Positions 24,202 through 39,138 of a stretch of 39,429 nucleotides of DNA are shown here, piece by piece (the first letter of the stretch is position 1; every line of letters starts with the position of its first letter). The translations under genes and the position numbers were made by a program. The notes beneath the pieces were generated by a model that saw only the letters and a list, made by a program, of their open reading frames with translations, searched no databases and had not been told where the DNA came from. Source of the DNA: Salinivirgaceae bacterium (lineage in GTDB: Bacteria > Bacteroidota > Bacteroidia > Bacteroidales > SZUA-534); contig JAFYYJ010000109.1 in NCBI GenBank assembly GCA_017557605.1, positions 64,791 to 104,219 of the forward strand. The letters are read 5' to 3'.

Positions 24202-24257
24202 GTAAGATATATACGAGAATTACGGATAGAACATAAGAAAATAACAATTTTTACTTG
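24202..24257 (+). promoter_or_regulatory. Conserved upstream box shared by the amtB and glnN promoters
   Basis: An ungapped comparison with 29675-29730 gives 43 identical bases of 56, counted by eye. The best-kept parts are GTAAG, TACGAGAA, TAC and ATAGAAC. It lies directly upstream of the -33 element at the same distance in both, so it is a candidate activator or repressor site for a nitrogen regulon. GTA-N7-TAC near its 5' end recalls, but does not match, the NtcA pattern GTA-N8-TAC. Confidence 0.6.
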
Positions 24258-24283
24258 CAAAATAAAAATCAGTTGTATATTTG
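24255..24283 (+). promoter_or_regulatory. Promoter of the amtB leader transcript
   Basis: TTG at 24255-24257 (-33) and TATATTTG at 24276-24283 (-7, TAnnTTTG), 21 nt start to start. The glnN leader promoter has the same elements and spacing, and the same TGTATATTTGC and GTCGAAA bases around and after the -7 box. Transcription should start near 24288, about 50 nt before the leader ATG. Confidence 0.8.
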
Positions 24284-24337
24284 CCACGTCGAAAATAACA
24301 ACAAAAGAGCATTTCGATTTTAAAACAGAAAATGACG

Positions 24338-24445
24338 ATGAACAAGAATTTGAACAATGGTAATGGTTTGAATCTCAATCCGAATCGAAATCGTCATAAT
24401 AATAATCGAAATCGATATGCGGGCCTAACCAGTCGGGCGGTTTGA
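24338..24445 (+). CDS. Asn-rich leader peptide of amtB (35 aa)
   Basis: The frame reads MNKNLNNGNGLNLNPNRNRH and continues NNNRNRYAGLTSRAV, with 13 Asn in 35 codons (11 AAT, 2 AAC). An in-frame ATG also exists at 24332, but 24338 is chosen because the glnN leader begins with the same M-N-K-x-L-N-N-G pattern. The last Asn codon (residue 25, 24410-24412) lies 14 nt before the segment 24427-24434, which can pair with the terminator arm. A ribosome stalled on Asn codons would leave that segment free, and one reaching the stop at 24443-24445 would cover it. The likely role is a sensor of tRNA-Asn charging for attenuation. A small functional basic peptide is a less likely alternative. Confidence 0.8.
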   Translation: MNKNLNNGNGLNLNPNRNRHNNNRNRYAGLTSRAV

Positions 24446-24477
24446 GTTGAAGACAAAATGAATTCATAAGGCTGGTT
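24427..24477 (+). promoter_or_regulatory. Predicted antiterminator hairpin in the amtB leader
   Basis: AACCAGTC (24427-24434, codons 30-33 of the leader) pairs over 8 bp with GGCTGGTT (24470-24477), one G-U pair included. This occupies the 5' arm of the terminator that follows, and two bases that form G-U pairs in the terminator form standard pairs here. Confidence 0.75.
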
Positions 24478-24499
24478 TCAAACGGAATCGGCCTTTTTT
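24468..24499 (+). terminator. Attenuator (intrinsic terminator) before amtB
   Basis: Stem of 11 bp (24468-24478 with 24485-24495, three G-U pairs), loop CAAACG, and a six-T tract 24494-24499. It sits between the leader stop codon and the amtB ATG (40 nt later). The glnN leader has almost the same hairpin, with the identical loop. Confidence 0.85.
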
Positions 24500-24539
24500 A
24501 ATGAGTAAAACAGAGAGTATTAATTAAAAACATAAAAAG

Positions 24540-25913
24540 ATGAAAAAACGTTACGTAATTTTTACAGCCATTATCGGCATAATTGCCATTTGCGGGCTGT
24601 TGGTTCCCGAACAGGCGGGAATCTGGGAATTGAGCGACAACATTAGCGCCGCCGACATTGCGTGGATGATTACCGCCACCATTTTTGTGCTGATGATGAC
24701 CCCTGGACTGTCATTCTTCTACGGTGGTATGGTTCGCAAGAAAAACGTCATTTCCACTATCCTTCAGTCCATTATCGCAATGGGCATTATCAGCGTGCTG
24801 TGGGTGTTTGTGGGCTTTTCGCTTTGCTTTGGCGAAGATGTCGGCGGTTTGGGAATCATTGGCAACCCCGCAACCTATTTTATGTTCCACAACGTTGGCG
24901 GTGCGGCCACCGACTCACTCTCAACCCGTCTGGGGCTGACCATTCCGCTGGCCCTGTATGCGCTTTTTCAGATGAAATTCGCAATCATAACCCCTTCATT
25001 GATAACGGGCTCGTTTGCCGAACGTGTGCGTTTTTCGGCCTATATGATTTTTATGGCGCTGTTCTGCATTTTCGTCTATTGCCCGCTTGCGCATATGACC
25101 TGGCACCCCGATGGCCTTTTCTGCCGAATGCACGTCAAGGATTTCGCGGGTGGCATTGTGGTTCACGCTTCGAGCGGTATTGCCGCTTTGGTTGGCGCAA
25201 TCTTTTTGGGGCGCCGTCGCGATAAGAAATCGGAGCCAGCCAACGTGCCGTATGTTGTTTTGGGCGCTGTGCTGCTGTGGTTGGGCTGGTTCGGATTCAA
25301 CGCGGGCAGTTCGCTTCACGCTGACGGAATGGCCGTCAAAGCCTTCCTGAACACTAACACTGCAGCCGCCACGGCAATGATGATGTGGATTTTTATCGAT
25401 TGTCTGACAGGCCGCAAGCCGTCGGCAATGGGTGCCGCTGTGGGCGGTGTGCTTGGTCTGGTGGCCATTACACCGTCAGCGGGATGGGTGTCGGTGAGCG
25501 ACAGCATTGTCATTGCCATTATCACCACTATAATCTCGAACTTTGCGTGCCACTGGAAGAACCACACCAGCGTCGACGATGCCTTGGATGTGTTCCCGAC
25601 ACACGGTGTGGGCGGTATTGTCGGCACAATCCTTTCGGGCATATTCGTCTATCAGTATGAGGCCGAAAGCCTTGTGGCCGATGGCGTCACGCACGGACGG
25701 TTCATTTTCAACCACGTGATTGCCATTTGCATTGTCTTTGTCTTCACATTTGCAATGACCTATCTGCTCTATTACATTACAAATAAGATGGTTACGATGC
25801 GTGTGAGCCAGGCCGACGAAACCGTTGGACTCGACATTTCGCAGCACGACGAGCACTATGGCCGTCTCTCGACCGAAAACCGTGAACTGGCAGAGTATTT
25901 CAATGAGAATTAA
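24540..25913 (+). CDS. amtB: Ammonium transporter AmtB
   Basis: 457 residues, 11-12 membrane helices, Amt/MEP/Rh family. Visible are TPGLSFFYGGMVRKKN near helix 2 and the twin pore histidines His209 (GGIVVHASSGIAALVGA) and His355 (FPTHGVGGIVG). The cytoplasmic tail ends GLDISQHDEHYG, the usual Amt ending that faces PII proteins. It imports NH4+/NH3 through the inner membrane when ammonium is scarce. It is preceded by the Asn-rich attenuator leader and followed, after 168 nt without a clear terminator, by asnB. No glnB/glnK (PII) gene lies beside it in the window, though Bacteroidota often have one there. Confidence 0.95.
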   Translation: MKKRYVIFTAIIGIIAICGLLVPEQAGIWELSDNISAADIAWMITATIFVLMMTPGLSFFYGGMVRKKNVISTILQSIIAMGIISVLWVFVGFSLCFGEDVGGLGIIGNPATYFMFHNVGGAATDSLSTRLGLTIPLALYALFQMKFAIITPSLITGSFAERVRFSAYMIFMALFCIFVYCPLAHMTWHPDGLFCRMHVKDFAGGIVVHASSGIAALVGAIFLGRRRDKKSEPANVPYVVLGAVLLWLGWFGFNAGSSLHADGMAVKAFLNTNTAAATAMMMWIFIDCLTGRKPSAMGAAVGGVLGLVAITPSAGWVSVSDSIVIAIITTIISNFACHWKNHTSVDDALDVFPTHGVGGIVGTILSGIFVYQYEAESLVADGVTHGRFIFNHVIAICIVFVFTFAMTYLLYYITNKMVTMRVSQADETVGLDISQHDEHYGRLSTENRELAEYFNEN

Positions 25914-26079
25914 CAATGAAAAATTAACAATTAACAATTAAAAATGAATGAATTATAAAAGTTGAGAAGGTTGAGGACGTTGAGTGGGTTGAGAAAACTA
26001 AACCTTCTAAACAGCGAAGCGCTCGACTTTCTAAACTGTGACTTAAAACTTTGAACTTAAAAACTTTAAACTTTATAAA
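25909..26079 (+). repeat. Intergenic repeats between amtB and asnB
   Basis: From left to right: the AT-rich TTAACAATTAACAATTAAAA module (25909-25950), the 16-mer TCTAAACAGCGAAGCG (26006-26021, also at 39232 and 39256), and AACTTAAAACTTTGAACTT-type low-complexity sequence ending in TTTAAACTTTATAAA (26065-26079). The last 15-mer also precedes glnN (29978-29992). No terminator with a T-tract is seen, so asnB may be read from the amtB promoter. Confidence 0.6.
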
Positions 26080-29086: not shown

Positions 29087-29108
29087 CAATTGGTAAAAAT
29101 GACCAAAG

Positions 29109-29139
29109 GCCGAATCTCAATAGGGGTTCGGCTTTTTTT
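29109..29139 (+). terminator. Terminator of the HTH-DUF805 gene
   Basis: GCCGAATC (29109-29116) pairs with GGTTCGGC (29125-29132, one G-U pair), then TTTTTTT. Confidence 0.85.
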
Positions 29140-29191
29140 GTGTGTTGAGGCTATTACAATTTCGCCAGAATATCAGGAATAAAAAGATAAA

Positions 29192-29376
29192 GCCCGGAAC
29201 GGGCGGCATAATATAGGCAGGGGCGTAAGCCCCTGTTGTTTAATGTGTTCCCTGCAAATTGAGCCCTGAAGGGGCGATACTAATAATGTCGTGTCACCCT
29301 TTCAGGGTTCTGATGTTTCCGCGCAATTGGTCCGTGGGTTTACACCCACGGCTGTGATATTTTACCCTTTCAGGGT
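29192..29376. repeat. REP-like cluster of six palindromes
   Basis: Six short hairpins in 185 nt: GCCCGgaaCGGGC (29192-29204), CAGGGGCgtaaGCCCCTG (29218-29235), GCCCtgaagGGGC (29263-29275), ACCCTttcAGGGT (29296-29308), CCGTGGGTttacACCCACGG (29332-29351) and ACCCTttcAGGGT again (29364-29376). No frame is open across it. This kind of mosaic is seen between genes in many Bacteroidota, often linked to REP-associated (IS200-like) transposases, but none is present here. Confidence 0.7.
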
Positions 29377-29674
29377 TTCCGTTCGCACTACACATTAACG
29401 AGTCACCTTTTTTGGGATATCACAATTTGTGACTTCCAATTCTTTAAGGTCGCAATTTGCGACCTTGAACATTTGCGCACATTTCTCTTTCAAAATTCAA
29501 TCAAATCCCCAAAATCCGCGTCAAACTGCAACCAAAATCCGCCAATCTCTTCCTAAAAATCACAAAACCTGCCTTTGTACTCCTTTTTGCAAATTTCAAA
29601 TTGTTAGCGGAAACGTTTTCTGGCTAATCGAAACTTAATAAAAATATCAAAATAAGCGTTCAAAATAATAAATC
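29377..29674. other. AT-rich gap before the glnN leader
   Basis: No gene is supported: a 69-codon frame at 29429-29638 is of low complexity and has no recognisable homology. The stretch contains two palindromes with a shared core (29420-29466) and a long AT-rich run. Confidence 0.4.
29420..29466. promoter_or_regulatory. Pair of palindromes with common core CAATTTG
   Basis: TCACAATTTGTGA (29420-29432) and a 21-nt palindrome with arms AAGGTCGCAA/TTGCGACCTT (29446-29466). Their centres are 30 nt apart, about three helical turns, and the core CnCAATTTGnG is the same. The partner gene is not obvious. Confidence 0.4.
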
Positions 29675-29730
29675 GTAAGCAATGTACGAGAAATACTAAT
29701 AGAACCTAACAAATAATCGATTTTTAGTTG
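29675..29730 (+). promoter_or_regulatory. Conserved upstream box, glnN copy
   Basis: Counterpart of 24202-24257, with the same distance to the -33 element and 43 of 56 bases identical. TACGAGAA, ATAGAAC and the TTTTTA stretch before TTG are retained. Confidence 0.6.
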
Positions 29731-29756
29731 CGATTTTAAAACCGACTGTATATTTG
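29728..29756 (+). promoter_or_regulatory. Promoter of the glnN leader transcript
   Basis: TTG at 29728-29730 and TATATTTG at 29749-29756, again 21 nt apart and embedded in TGTATATTTGC followed by GTCGAAA, as at amtB. The leader ATG follows 50 nt after the -7 box. Confidence 0.8.
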
Positions 29757-29805: not shown

Positions 29806-29907
29806 ATGAACAAAGGATTGAATAACGGCAAGTCTTCCGCTTTGAATTCCAAAAAGAATTCGAAATGGAATAATTATAAAAAGAATTTGCCTGCCAATCC
29901 AGCCTGA
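29806..29907 (+). CDS. Asn-rich leader peptide of glnN (33 aa)
   Basis: The frame reads MNKGLNNGKSSALNSKKNSK and continues WNNYKKNLPANPA, with 9 Asn (7 AAT, 2 AAC) and 7 Lys in 33 codons. The N-terminus matches the amtB leader (MNK-x-LNNG), so the two are paralogous. The final codons CCA GCC T (29899-29905) can pair with the 5' arm of the downstream terminator. Stalling at Asn27 (29884-29886) or earlier would leave them free; stalling at the last Asn (residue 31) or termination at 29905-29907 would cover them. The likely role is to make glnN transcription depend on tRNA-Asn charging. Lys codons could add a second input. Confidence 0.8.
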   Translation: MNKGLNNGKSSALNSKKNSKWNNYKKNLPANPA

Positions 29908-29938
29908 CAGGTTGCAAACCGAAAAAGACAAAGGCTGG
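29899..29938 (+). promoter_or_regulatory. Predicted antiterminator hairpin in the glnN leader
   Basis: CCAGCCT (29899-29905) pairs with AGGCTGG (29932-29938), 7 standard base pairs, 6 of them G-C/C-G rich. The loop holds a small hairpin GGTT-GCA-AACC (29910-29920). Forming it removes the 5' arm of the terminator. Confidence 0.75.
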
Positions 29939-29960
29939 TTCAAACGAATCGGCCTTTTTT
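29930..29960 (+). terminator. Attenuator (intrinsic terminator) before glnN
   Basis: 11-bp stem (29930-29940 with 29947-29957, two G-U pairs), loop CAAACG, T-tract 29955-29960. It is nearly identical to the amtB attenuator and lies 48 nt before the glnN ATG. Confidence 0.85.
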
Positions 29961-30008: not shown

Positions 30009-32195
30009 ATGAGCAAGTTAAGATTTGATGTTGTTCAAGATGCTTTCAGGAAGAAAGCGGTTGACATTGAGGTTCCAAAAACTCGTCCGTCGGAATATTT
30101 TGGCGAGTTGGTATTTAATCGCGAGAAAATGCACAAATACCTTGACGTTAAGACATTTAACGCCCTGGTTGACTGCATCGACAATGGCAAACCGTTGAGC
30201 ACCGCCGTGGCCGACAAGGTGGCCGCAGGCATTAAGGCGTGGGCTATTGAGCACGGCGTTACGCACTGCACCCACTGGTTCCAACCGCTTACCGAAGGCA
30301 CTGCCGAAAAGCACGACTCGTTTATGGAGTACGACTGGAAGGGCGGTATGATTGAGGAGTTCGACGGCAAGTCGCTCGTTCAGCAGGAGCCTGACGCATC
30401 ATCGTTCCCATCGGGCGGCATCCGCGCCACTTTCGAGGCTCGCGGCTACACTGCTTGGGACCCGACTTCACCTGTCTTCATTCAGGACGACACGCTCTGC
30501 ATCCCGACAGTATTTATCTCGTATACAGGCGAATCGCTTGACTATAAGACACCTTTGAAAAAGGCTTTGAACGCCGTTTCGAACGCCGCAGTGCCAATCT
30601 GCCAAATGTTCGACCCGAAAGTTAAGAAGGTGTTCTCTTATCTGGGCTGGGAACAGGAGTATTTCCTTGTTGACGAGGACCTTTACGCCGCCCGTCCCGA
30701 CCTTATGCTCACTGGCCGCACGCTAATGGGCCACGAGTCATCGAAGAACCAACAGTTGGACGACCACTACTTTGGCGCCATTCCGTCGCGTGTGGCAGCC
30801 TTTATGCGCGACCTTGAGATTCAGGGCCACCGTCTTGGCATTCCTTTGAAAACCCGTCACAACGAGGTTGCGCCGAACCAATTTGAGTTGGCGCCGATTT
30901 TTGGCGAGACCAACCTTTCGAACGACCAAAACCAATTGATAATGAATCTTATGCACAATGTTGCAAAGAAACACGGTTTTGTTGTTCTGCTTCACGAGAA
31001 GCCATTTCAGGGAATCAACGGTTCGGGCAAGCACAACAACTGGAGTCTCGGAACCGACACTGGCACCCTGCTGCTGGCACCTGGCAAAGACGCACGCGGC
31101 AACCTGCAGTTTGTGACATTCTTTGTTAACGTTCTGGCCGCCGTTCAGCGCTACAACGGACTGCTGAAGGCTTCCATTGCATCGGCAACCAACGCTCACC
31201 GTCTGGGCGCCAACGAGGCACCACCGGCAATTGTTTCGGCCTTCCTTGGCAAGACAATGACCGACGTTCTGCACAAACTGCTTGAGGTTCCGTCAGATAC
31301 GCCAATCGAGATTGCTGGCAAGAAAGGTCAGTCAGTTGGTTTGGTTGAGATTCCTGAAATTTTCATCGATAACACCGACCGCAACCGTACATCGCCGTTC
31401 GCCTTCACGGGCAACCGCTTCGAGTTCCGCGCCGTGGGTTCGAGCGCCAACTGCGCCAACGCAATGACCGTTCTGAACACCATCGTGGCAGACCAACTCG
31501 TTCAGTTCAAGGCCGACGTCGACAAGGCCATCGCCGCAGGCAAGGCTAAAAACGTGGCCATTATGGACACTCTGAAGCCAATCATCGCTTCGATTATCGA
31601 CGTTGTCTGCTTCGACGGAAACGGTTACAGCGAGGAGTGGAACGTTGAGGCAAAACGCCGCGGTTTGAACACCGAAAAGTCTGTGCCTGAAATGTTTACC
31701 GAATTCACAAAACCTGAAGCCATTGCAATGTTCGAGCGTATGGGCGTTTACACCGAAAAGGAACTCGAGGCACGCAACGAGGTTAAATGGGAAATCTATA
31801 CAAAGAAGGTTCAGATTGAGGCTCGCGTAATGGGTCGTATGGCTACCAACCACATCATTCCTGCAGCCATCGCCTATCAGACCAAACTTCTTGAGAACAT
31901 CGAAAAGATTAAAAACATCTTCCCCGACAAGTATCAGAAGGTGGCAGCCGTCGAGATTGCTCTGGTTGAGGAGATTTCGGAGCGCATTGCCGAAATCCGC
32001 AGCAAGGTTGACGCAATGATTGAGGCTCGCAAGGTGGCCAACAAGATTGATTGCGAGTACAAGAAGGCGAAGGCTTACCACGAGATTGCCGAATCGCTCT
32101 TCGACATCCGCAAGCCAATCGATAAACTTGAGGAAGTGGTTGACAACGATATGTGGCCGCTGCCGAAATACAGAGAGTTGCTGTTTATCAGTTAA
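30009..32195 (+). CDS. glnN: Glutamine synthetase type III
   Basis: 728 residues, the length typical of GSIII (GlnN), the main glutamine synthetase of Bacteroidales. Characteristic text includes THWFQPLTEGTAEKHDSF, FPSGGIRATFEARGYTAWD, RHNEVAPNQFELAPIF, GINGSGKHNNWS and NRTSPFAFTGNRFEFRAVG. It makes glutamine from glutamate, ammonia and ATP in the cytoplasm as a dodecamer. The gene follows its own attenuator leader, and gltB and gltD lie downstream on the same strand. The glnN-gltB gap (144 nt) has no clear T-tract terminator, so the attenuator may control the whole GS-GOGAT set. Confidence 0.97.
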   Translation: MSKLRFDVVQDAFRKKAVDIEVPKTRPSEYFGELVFNREKMHKYLDVKTFNALVDCIDNGKPLSTAVADKVAAGIKAWAIEHGVTHCTHWFQPLTEGTAEKHDSFMEYDWKGGMIEEFDGKSLVQQEPDASSFPSGGIRATFEARGYTAWDPTSPVFIQDDTLCIPTVFISYTGESLDYKTPLKKALNAVSNAAVPICQMFDPKVKKVFSYLGWEQEYFLVDEDLYAARPDLMLTGRTLMGHESSKNQQLDDHYFGAIPSRVAAFMRDLEIQGHRLGIPLKTRHNEVAPNQFELAPIFGETNLSNDQNQLIMNLMHNVAKKHGFVVLLHEKPFQGINGSGKHNNWSLGTDTGTLLLAPGKDARGNLQFVTFFVNVLAAVQRYNGLLKASIASATNAHRLGANEAPPAIVSAFLGKTMTDVLHKLLEVPSDTPIEIAGKKGQSVGLVEIPEIFIDNTDRNRTSPFAFTGNRFEFRAVGSSANCANAMTVLNTIVADQLVQFKADVDKAIAAGKAKNVAIMDTLKPIIASIIDVVCFDGNGYSEEWNVEAKRRGLNTEKSVPEMFTEFTKPEAIAMFERMGVYTEKELEARNEVKWEIYTKKVQIEARVMGRMATNHIIPAAIAYQTKLLENIEKIKNIFPDKYQKVAAVEIALVEEISERIAEIRSKVDAMIEARKVANKIDCEYKKAKAYHEIAESLFDIRKPIDKLEEVVDNDMWPLPKYRELLFIS

Positions 32196-38292: not shown

Positions 38293-39138
38293 ATGAAAGT
38301 TCATTTCACCAAAATGCACGGTTTGGGCAACGATTACATCTACGTCAATGTGACGGAGCGTGAGTTGCCCAATCCGTCGGCATTGTCGGTGGCCTGGAGC
38401 GACCGACACAAAGGCATCGGCAGCGACGGTCTGGTGCTCATCGGGCGGTCGGAGGTGGCCGATTTCAGTATGCGCATTTTCAACGCCGACGGCTCGGAAG
38501 CCTTAATGTGCGGAAACGCGTCGCGCTGCATTGGCAAATATTTGCACGACAAGCATATAACCGACAAAACCGAAATACGGCTCGAGACTCTTTCGGGCAT
38601 CAAAATCATCCGTCTGAACCTTGACGCCAACGGCAATGTCGATACCGTGACCGTTGATATGGGCGAAGGCGCCCCAATGGGTGTCATTGGGTTGGACGGT
38701 CAGGAGCATTTGCTTGTGGGCGAGCAAGTTGAGTCTTGTGGGCACATTTTTAACGGCACGGCCATTAGTATGGGCAATCCGCACCTGGTTCTTTTGGTGA
38801 CGAATGCGGAACTTGCGCCCGTGGCCGAAGTGGGTGCCGACCTTGAGTACAGCCCAATGTTCCCCAACCGTACCAATGTTGAGTTTGCGGAGGTTATCGA
38901 CCGCCAACATATCCGTATGCGAGTGTGGGAGCGCGGCAGCGGCATAACGCAGGCCTGTGGCACTGGAGCGTGCGCCACCGCCGTGGCAGCCGCAATGGCT
39001 GGCCTGACCGACCCCGACAACTGCAACATTCAAATGGACGGCGGCTCGCTTCACATCAGTTGGAACCCCGACACCCGCCGCGTGCTAATGACAGGCACCG
39101 CCACAACGGTGTTTGAGGGGGAGATAGAGATTGATTGA
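38293..39138 (+). CDS. dapF: Diaminopimelate epimerase DapF
   Basis: 281 residues. Both catalytic cysteines are present: Cys73 in LMCGNASRC and Cys222 in QACGTGACATA; the start KMHGLGNDYIYV is also typical. It interconverts LL- and meso-diaminopimelate for lysine and peptidoglycan. The next gene is dapL, giving the aminotransferase version of the pathway (tetrahydrodipicolinate to LL-DAP in one step). It lies 119 nt after gltD, separated by repeats, so membership of the glt operon is uncertain. Confidence 0.96.
   Translation: MKVHFTKMHGLGNDYIYVNVTERELPNPSALSVAWSDRHKGIGSDGLVLIGRSEVADFSMRIFNADGSEALMCGNASRCIGKYLHDKHITDKTEIRLETLSGIKIIRLNLDANGNVDTVTVDMGEGAPMGVIGLDGQEHLLVGEQVESCGHIFNGTAISMGNPHLVLLVTNAELAPVAEVGADLEYSPMFPNRTNVEFAEVIDRQHIRMRVWERGSGITQACGTGACATAVAAAMAGLTDPDNCNIQMDGGSLHISWNPDTRRVLMTGTATTVFEGEIEID

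What the first reader, a model, noticed from the sequence alone, without database searches (positions are those of the whole stretch)
24255..24540. Asn-rich leader peptide with a complete attenuator in front of amtB
Seen directly: promoter, a 35-codon frame with 13 Asn codons, a hairpin with a six-T tract 40 nt before amtB, and an alternative 8-bp pairing (24427-24434 with 24470-24477) between the last leader codons and the terminator's 5' arm. The last Asn codon lies 14 nt before the pairing segment, the right distance for a stalled ribosome to leave it free. Known: this is the logic of the trp, his and leu attenuators. Inferred: low tRNA-Asn charging turns on ammonium uptake, so asparagine is used as a nitrogen signal. 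I know of no described Asn attenuator for amtB.
Basis: partly seen in the sequence, partly recalled or inferred. Interest (0 to 1): 0.93.

Follow-up and report, generated by a model that had tools for sequence, protein, structure and literature searches.

The report
Asparagine attenuators controlling nitrogen assimilation genes
In a genus of rumen bacteria, short asparagine-rich reading frames, each followed by a terminator-like hairpin, sit in front of the ammonium transporter–asparagine synthase genes and of two other sets of nitrogen-assimilation genes; the ribosome reading them is predicted to act as an asparagine gauge, so that scarcity of asparagine would let all three sets be transcribed.

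Summary
Confirmed: promoter box, 37-codon frame with 13 Asn, terminator with six T 40 nt before amtB, and an 8-bp alternative pairing, at the stated coordinates. The finding is larger than reported. asnB (asparagine synthase B) follows amtB. A second, homologous leader (29806-29907, 9 Asn of 33) with its own promoter box and terminator precedes the type III glutamine synthetase gene in the same window (then gltB, gltD, dapF). A third precedes a membrane-protein–glnK(P-II)–amt cluster elsewhere in the genome. A covariance model finds 29 strong sites in 20 family genomes, all in the window's genus (glnA leader in 10 of 11 genomes, glnK leader in 10, amtB leader in 8); in 390 Bacteroidales genomes of other genera the best score is 43.9 bits against 67-95. 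Asn is the most enriched of 13 residues tested in all three peptides, and Asn codons keep their distance to an antiterminator arm that glnA encodes in another reading frame. Best reading: trp/his-type ribosome-mediated attenuation, new in amino acid and as a three-operon regulon. Weak points: the antiterminator is no stronger than shuffles in most amtB and all glnK leaders, the terminator wins at equilibrium, the own-clade glnK leader fits poorly, and there are no expression data.

The parts
24276..24283 (+). -7 promoter box TATATTTG of the amtB leader (TTG of the -33 region at 24255-24257)
   Evidence: sequence; the box and an upstream TTG are present in 23 of 23 distinct leaders; consensus TAnnTTTG/TTTG quoted in PMC7366714
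24332..24445 (+). leader ORF, 37 codons, 13 Asn
24423..24438 (+). possible protector hairpin GCCU/GGGC with the antiterminator arm in its loop
   Evidence: energies do not clearly support a protector role
24427..24434 (+). antiterminator arm AACCAGUC inside the last leader codons
24468..24499 (+). intrinsic terminator and six-T tract; its 5' arm 24470-24477 is the antiterminator partner
24540..25913 (+). amtB, ammonium transporter
   Evidence: PF00909, TIGR00836
26082..27749 (+). asnB, asparagine synthase B, 168 nt downstream of amtB; no + strand terminator and no TAnnTTTG box in the gap
   Evidence: PRK09431 899 bits; (a sigma-70-like match, 9 of 12, at 25910-25938 is the only promoter-like site reported there)
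29749..29756 (+). -7 promoter box TATATTTG of the glnA leader
29806..29907 (+). second leader ORF, 33 codons, 9 Asn
29890..29911 (+). possible protector hairpin CCUG/CAGG around the antiterminator arm of the glnA leader
   Evidence: sequence
29899..29905 (+). antiterminator arm CCAGCCU, able to pair with AGGCUGG 29932-29938
29930..29960 (+). terminator of the glnA leader with T tract (AAAGGCTGGTTCAAACGAATCGGCC T6)
30009..32195 (+). glutamine synthetase type III
   Evidence: PF12437, PF18318, PF00120
32340..38174 (+). gltB and gltD (glutamate synthase) downstream of glutamine synthetase; no terminator or TAnnTTTG box in the gaps, co-transcription not tested
38293..39138 (+). dapF, next gene; co-transcription not tested
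   Evidence: PF01678

Best explanation
The leader in front of amtB-asnB, and its two homologues in front of the type III glutamine synthetase gene and of glnK-amt, are most likely ribosome-mediated transcription attenuators read by asparagine. With asparagine plentiful, the ribosome would run to the leader stop codon and cover the antiterminator arm while the terminator is made, so transcription would stop after about 210 nt. With charged tRNA-Asn scarce, the ribosome would stall on the Asn codons 13-30 nt upstream of the arm; the arm would then capture the terminator's 5' arm before its 3' arm is made, and RNA polymerase would run into the genes. A hairpin around the arm may hold it after ribosome release, but the energies do not clearly show this. 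Shown: anatomy, conservation, register, gene contexts. Inferred: translation, stalling, the switch, co-transcription, and that asparagine thereby reports nitrogen status for all three sets of genes.
For: Of 13 residues tested, Asn is the most enriched in all three peptides: own genome 13, 9 and 8 Asn against 3.2, 2.4 and 3.3 in shuffles, reached by 0, 0 and 44 of 5000; in the window the two leaders rank 1 and 2 of 662 short ORFs by Asn fraction. In the amtB family 14 of 15 Asn columns are Asn in every sequence that has the codon. Length differences between ATG and antiterminator arm within a family are 12, 6 and 6 nt, all multiples of 3. Register: Asn codons at -28/-25/-19 from CCAG in 8 of 8 amtB leaders and 4 of 7 glnK leaders, at -30/-27/-18 or -30/-27/-15 in 8 of 8 glnA leaders; the stop lies 27-28 nt before the terminator 5' arm in all 16 amtB and glnA leaders. 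CCAGYC at the arm is present at all 29 sites known, although glnA encodes it in another frame than amtB and glnK (see the Against line on how they were collected). In folding, the antiterminator forms before the terminator's 3' arm appears with probability 0.84-1.0 (amtB) and 1.0 (glnA) when the ribosome is stalled; with the ribosome at the stop, freeing the terminator arm costs only 0.2-1.7 kcal/mol against 2.4-9.2 when stalled. Leader Asn codons are 24 AAT: 6 AAC against 173: 371 in 19 ORFs of the window taken as genes, while the other pyrimidine-ending leader codons are 15: 18 (24:6 against 15:18, Fisher p 0.009). A dedicated AsnRS is over its cut-off in 8 of 11 genus genomes. No + strand gene upstream needs the two terminators of the window: the gene before the amtB leader is on the other strand, and the gene before the glnA leader has its own terminator-like site at 29105-29136.
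Against: The antiterminator is not exceptional in length (162, 257, 238 and 481 of 500 shuffles reach it in the four leaders tested) nor, in 6 of 8 amtB and 7 of 7 glnK leaders, in strength (75 or more of 300 shuffles reach it). At equilibrium the terminator wins in 23 of 23 leaders even with the ribosome stalled, so the switch must be kinetic. Without any ribosome the terminator arm is tied up about as firmly as with a stalled one in amtB and glnK (2.6-5.3 and 3.2-5.7 kcal/mol), and in 6 of 8 glnA leaders the antiterminator forms with probability 0.68-0.99, so a protector role of the hairpin around the arm is doubtful. The glnK leader of the window's own clade (L218, L220) gives antiterminator probability 0.0 when stalled, and its stop codon is only 4 nt before the terminator arm. 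The 23 leaders were collected with a pattern that demands CCAGYC and the terminator, so their invariance there is partly by construction; all 28 sites then known from DNA search passed it, and the one found later by the model also has CCAGYC. Covariation is weak: no two-sided change in terminator or antiterminator, one protector pair with two-sided change. Lys is common in the glnA peptide (6-8 residues), though not above base composition (657 of 5000). Two of the three sets of genes do not make asparagine. asnA and asnS have no such leader in the genus (8 loci each; one marginal ORF of 4 Asn in 18). A transamidation route to Asn-tRNA was not searched for. No expression data exist here.
Confidence: 0.76

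Rival explanations
1. The elements are ribosome-mediated attenuators, but the signal is translation speed in general (for example charging of Lys, Asn and Arg together, or growth-rate dependent coupling), not asparagine in particular.
For: Lys is 20% of glnA leader residues and Arg 14-15% of those of the amtB and glnK leaders; the glnK leaders have only 6-8 Asn in 39-48 residues (peptides).
Against: Of 13 residues tested only Asn is clearly enriched over base composition in all three families; Lys is not (657 of 5000 shuffles reach it in glnA), and the amtB leader has at most one Lys and no Gln. The preference for AAT in leaders is specific to the Asn codons.
Confidence: 0.13
2. The promoter-proximal terminators are used by another factor (an RNA-binding protein, a metabolite or a trans-acting RNA) and the ORF is incidental or only keeps the RNA translated.
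For: The antiterminator is not stronger than chance in most amtB and all glnK leaders; the own-clade glnK leader fits the ribosome model poorly.
Against: The frame is kept (in-frame length differences, Asn columns); no known riboswitch or T-box matches; the Asn codons keep their spacing to the arm.
Confidence: 0.07
3. The ORF encodes a small Asn-rich protein with its own function, and the hairpin is simply its terminator.
For: The frame is conserved in 8 of 8 distinct amtB leaders.
Against: Across the three families little is shared beyond Asn richness and the tail that encodes the RNA arm, and glnA encodes that arm in another frame. There is no second TAnnTTTG box between either terminator of the window and the gene after it, so amtB and glutamine synthetase would need readthrough.
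Confidence: 0.03
4. The leader acts as a reinitiation antenna that raises translation of the next gene.
For: Described for leader genes of many phyla, Bacteroidetes included (PMC4833913, passages).
Against: There the favoured distance is 11-14 bp in Bacteroidetes; here 94 nt (amtB) and 101 nt (glnA) with a terminator between.
Confidence: 0.01

Closest known systems
trp, his and leu attenuators (ribosome-mediated transcription attenuation)
   Same: Leader peptide rich in one amino acid, mutually exclusive antiterminator and terminator, control codons upstream of the antiterminator arm, stop codon placed so that the terminating ribosome covers that arm; with asnB after amtB the genes make the amino acid that is read. 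(Features of the trp/his type recalled, and as in the abstract of PMC1183508.)
   Different: Asparagine as the amino acid; homologous copies in front of ammonium transport, P-II and glutamine synthetase genes that do not make it; the antiterminator arm lies in the loop of the possible protector hairpin instead of in its stem.
T-box elements of asparagine genes in Firmicutes
   Same: Would also read tRNA-Asn charging; PMC2494555 reports asnS under T-box control in a few species (passage).
   Different: No T-box in the two leaders of the window by Rfam; sensing here would be by the ribosome.
Ammonium-responsive nitrogen genes of Prevotella ruminicola 23 (PMC5552732, passages)
   Same: Nearly the same gene set (amtB, glnK, a membrane protein gene, asnB, type III glutamine synthetase, gltBD, dapF) changes together with nitrogen supply; it is higher on ammonium than on peptides (47-fold for the transporter), as an asparagine-read switch would predict, since peptides bring asparagine.
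   Different: The passages seen give no mechanism and are not consistent about whether limiting or non-limiting ammonium is the inducing condition; no Asn-rich leader was found upstream of amtB in the Prevotella loci examined here.

Membership tests
Ribosome-mediated transcription attenuator (trp/his type) | Short ORF upstream of the operon, enriched in codons of one amino acid | tested here: met
Ribosome-mediated transcription attenuator (trp/his type) | Intrinsic terminator between leader ORF and first gene | tested here: met
Ribosome-mediated transcription attenuator (trp/his type) | Conserved alternative pairing that uses the terminator 5' arm and overlaps the end of the ORF | tested here: met
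   92.1% of cells paired over 19 distinct rows; one of 8 pairs is broken in 12 rows; the rows were collected with a pattern that includes the core
Ribosome-mediated transcription attenuator (trp/his type) | Alternative pairing stronger than composition gives, and able to compete with the terminator | tested here: inconclusive
   reached by 9-52 of 300 shuffles in the 8 glnA leaders and by 11 and 25 in two amtB leaders, ordinary in the other 13; equilibrium favours the terminator in 23 of 23
Ribosome-mediated transcription attenuator (trp/his type) | Control codons placed so that a stalled ribosome frees the arm and a ribosome at the stop covers it | tested here: met
   met in amtB and glnA with an assumed footprint; in the own-clade glnK leader the stop is displaced
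Ribosome-mediated transcription attenuator (trp/his type) | Operon makes the amino acid that is read | tested here: met
   met for amtB-asnB, the finding given, co-transcription assumed; not so for the glutamine synthetase and glnK genes
Ribosome-mediated transcription attenuator (trp/his type) | Leader is translated and readthrough rises when the amino acid is limiting | not testable with these tools
   no expression data
T-box or glutamine riboswitch | Match to the Rfam model | tested here: not met
   no such match in the two leaders of the window; best chance match SSRC10, E 0.96; the glnK leader was not scanned
Reinitiation leader | Leader stop 11-14 bp before the structural gene in Bacteroidetes (PMC4833913) | tested here: not met
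   94 and 101 nt

The most novel reading that the evidence does not exclude
A bacterial genus runs its nitrogen-assimilation regulon (ammonium uptake, P-II, glutamine synthetase with the adjoining glutamate synthase genes, asparagine synthase) through duplicated ribosome-read asparagine attenuators, so that charged tRNA-Asn, not glutamine or a nitrogen transcription factor, is the common nitrogen signal.
Probability: 0.53. Interest if true: 0.9.

Novelty: new variant of a known kind. Interest (0 to 1): 0.8.

Why it matters
How Bacteroidota sense nitrogen is, to my knowledge, poorly understood: in Prevotella ruminicola nearly the same genes change up to 69-fold with nitrogen supply, and the passages read give no mechanism (PMC5552732). 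Here is a concrete, genus-wide, testable mechanism with a named signal. It would extend ribosome-mediated attenuation to asparagine and from single biosynthetic operons to a multi-operon regulon built by duplicating one attenuator, in rumen bacteria where ammonium capture matters for the host.

Tried and rejected
Wider occurrence. Upstream of amtB: 79 of the 80 loci were scanned, 500 nt each where present (L062, a C-terminal fragment, left out; L112 has only 35 nt upstream); 7 have the leader, all in the window's genus; the other 72 do not (marginal ORFs in L089, 4 Asn of 12, and L123, 5 of 10). A scan of the same loci at full length lists five further Asn-rich ORFs, none in front of amtB; one, in L094 (Prevotella, 9 Asn of 33, TTG start), overlaps the start of asnB and was not followed. 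In the 32 loci of other genera there is none at amtB (ORFs in L018 and L035 lie beyond the gene; L035 has no upstream sequence). Upstream of type III glutamine synthetase: none in 27 loci of other genera (L176 has a marginal ORF, 4 Asn of 21; one search misplaced the start in L175 and L182, and these two and L199, which has 142 nt upstream, were scanned again: none). Upstream of asnB: none in 28 loci of other genera (L301 rescanned). Upstream of asnA and asnS in the genus: none in 8 loci each (with one marginal ORF in L234; L238 misplaced there and rescanned over 436 nt). These are the closest 27-32 loci that each search returned, not every match.

Terminator-only DNA hits (G010 C2, G011 C59, G000 C55, G006 C97) have no Asn-rich frame and look like ordinary terminators. 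Model hits below 45 bits look ordinary too: 277 of 393 genomes have a match at E <= 0.01, so these E-values mean little; in that search only the best 10 candidates per genome were scored, with strict filters, so weak or divergent leaders in other genera could be missed. Of the 27 best loci outside the genus 22 were scanned (5 have short flanks) and none has an Asn-rich frame at the site (at most 6 Asn in 59-66 codons). Covariation as proof: too little variation. A leader-peptide search of the protein database was not possible.
Full report
What was checked. The window lies in a 3.1-Mb genome in 124 contigs; its closest named relatives are rumen Salinivirgaceae MAGs. The frame runs 24332-24445 with 13 Asn codons of 37. 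The terminator 24468-24495 has 12 pairs and six T and ends 40 nt before amtB. The 8-bp alternative pairing exists. The promoter box TATATTTG fits the sigma-ABfr consensus quoted in PMC7366714 (passage).

Chance. In dinucleotide shuffles of the frame 13 Asn was never reached in 5000 tries (mean 3.2), and of 662 short ORFs in the window this one ranks first by Asn fraction. At the 5.4% Asn usage of 19 ORFs of the window that I took as genes, 13 of 36 codons has a probability of 2e-8. The pairing length alone is not beyond chance (162 of 500 shuffles).

What else is there. The gene after amtB is asnB (PRK09431, 899 bits), 168 nt downstream with no + strand terminator and no TAnnTTTG box between them. 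A DNA search with the leader found a second copy inside the window: promoter box 29749-29756, a 33-codon frame 29806-29907 with 9 Asn, terminator 29930-29957 with T6, then glutamine synthetase type III (30009), gltB, gltD and dapF. It ranks second of the 662. A search with that copy found a third leader in front of a membrane-protein-like gene without Pfam match, glnK (P-II, PF00543) and a second amt gene (PF00909); in the own genome this is contig C47.

How widespread. A covariance model of 23 distinct leaders (these match it by construction) finds 29 strong sites (67-95 bits) in 20 genomes of the family, all in the window's genus: glnA leader in 10 of 11 genomes, glnK leader in 10 of 11, amtB leader in 8 of 11 plus an extra contig of the own bin; the next best scores 40.5. 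G006, 82% complete, has none; G002, G005 and G006 have no amtB match at E <= 1e-60. One strong site, G004 C37 (67.4 bits), was not in the model; it too precedes genes that look like the membrane-protein-glnK-amt set, and has 6 Asn in 42. In 393 genomes of the order, three of them of the genus, ten sites score 79.7-94.9, all in those three; the next is 43.9, and such hits look like ordinary terminators. That search scored only 10 candidates per genome, so divergent relatives could be missed. On this evidence there are three leaders per genome, in one genus.

Constraint. In the amtB family 14 of 15 Asn columns are Asn in every sequence carrying the codon; in glnA 6 of 8, in glnK 4 of 7. Within-family length differences between ATG and the antiterminator arm are 12, 6 and 6 nt. 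The Asn codons keep their distance to the arm in 8 of 8 amtB, 8 of 8 glnA and 4 of 7 glnK leaders, and the stop lies 27-28 nt before the terminator arm in all 16 amtB and glnA leaders, 22-24 in five glnK leaders and 4 in two. The 23 leaders were collected with a pattern that includes CCAGYC and the terminator; all 28 sites then known from DNA search passed it, and the 29th carries CCAGYC as well. glnA reads the arm in another frame than amtB and glnK, which argues for constraint on RNA. Terminator pairs are kept in 100% of cells over 19 distinct rows with two pairs varying on one side; antiterminator 92.1%; protector 90.8% with one pair changed on both sides in 12 cells; glnA breaks one protector pair and can form CCUG/CAGG instead. 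Two-sided changes are otherwise absent, so covariation supports the model only slightly.

Mechanism. Folding with a ribosome footprint ending 12 nt past the first A-site base (footprint recalled) gives antiterminator probability 0.84-1.0 in the 8 amtB leaders and 1.0 in the 8 glnA leaders before the terminator's 3' arm appears, and 0.0-0.69 in the 7 glnK leaders. Without a ribosome it is 0.02-0.26 in amtB, 0.31-0.99 in glnA and 0.0-0.02 in glnK. With the ribosome at the stop, freeing the terminator arm costs 0.2-1.7 kcal/mol in the 21 leaders where this is defined, against 2.4-9.2 when stalled; without any ribosome it costs 2.6-6.6, so other upstream pairings also tie up the arm and the protector idea is doubtful. 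Against shuffles of the intervening stretch the stalled value is high in glnA (9-52 of 300 reach it) and in two amtB leaders (11 and 25), ordinary in the other 6 amtB and the 7 glnK leaders. Once the 3' arm is made the terminator wins in 23 of 23, so the decision must be made during transcription; PMC1183508 (abstract) treats attenuation as a race of ribosome and RNA polymerase.

Signal. AsnRS is over its cut-off in 8 of 11 genus genomes, present in pieces in G006 and G008, and without a convincing match in G005; free asparagine is therefore the likely substrate, though a transamidation route was not searched for. asnA is present in 10 of 11, so asnB is not the only route to asparagine. Leader Asn codons are 24 AAT: 6 AAC in the own genome's three leaders (L218 standing for the identical own glnK leader) against 173: 371 in the 19 ORFs; other pyrimidine-ending leader codons are 15: 18. 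PMC1183508 argues that the choice among synonymous codons matters for sensitivity (abstract). That asparagine would report nitrogen status is inference: AsnB takes its amide from glutamine (recalled, and stated in a passage of PMC5552732).

Known or new. Paper searches (open-licence PMC only) showed no asparagine-read ribosomal attenuator and none for amtB or glutamine synthetase in the listings seen. PMC1262725 (passages) holds no 'asparagine' in its main text; PMC2494555 (passage) reports asnS under T-box in few species. The survey of Lopatovskaya et al. 2010, cited in PMC4833913, was not read, so absence from print is not established. Rfam has no relevant match in the two leaders of the window.

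Verdict. A real, genus-wide set of three homologous leaders with attenuator anatomy, most likely read by asparagine. Anatomy and conservation are shown; translation, stalling, co-transcription and regulation are not.

Noticed in passing
24212-24232 and 29685-29705: A shared element TACGAGANNTACNNATAGA ends at the same distance upstream of the -7 box of both leaders of the window; it is present in 8 of 8 distinct amtB and 8 of 8 glnA leaders and 0 of 7 glnK leaders: a possible site of a common regulator.
   Followed up: partly
29191-29236 (-) and 29332-29377 (+): Two Rfam Acido-Lenti-1 matches in opposite orientation in the gap before the glnA leader.
   Followed up: no
L159, L170 (G000 contigs C88 and C43): The genome bin holds an extra copy of the amtB leader (C88) and an asnB copy (87% identical) next to a cut amtB (C43), perhaps strain mixture.
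   Followed up: partly
L218, L220, L310: In the clade of the window species the glnK leader ends only 4 nt before the terminator arm instead of 22-24; the model does not explain this.
   Followed up: partly
L171:1696-2394 (-): The first gene after the glnK leader encodes a 233-residue protein without Pfam match, perhaps the counterpart of PRU_1977 in Prevotella ruminicola.
   Followed up: no
L094:3175 onward (+): In a Prevotella locus a TTG-started ORF with 9 Asn of 33 overlaps the start of asnB; chance or a relative of the idea.
   Followed up: no
24332-24445, 29806-29907: The leaders use AAT for Asn although genes of the window prefer AAC; the other pyrimidine-ending leader codons show no such shift.
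   Followed up: yes
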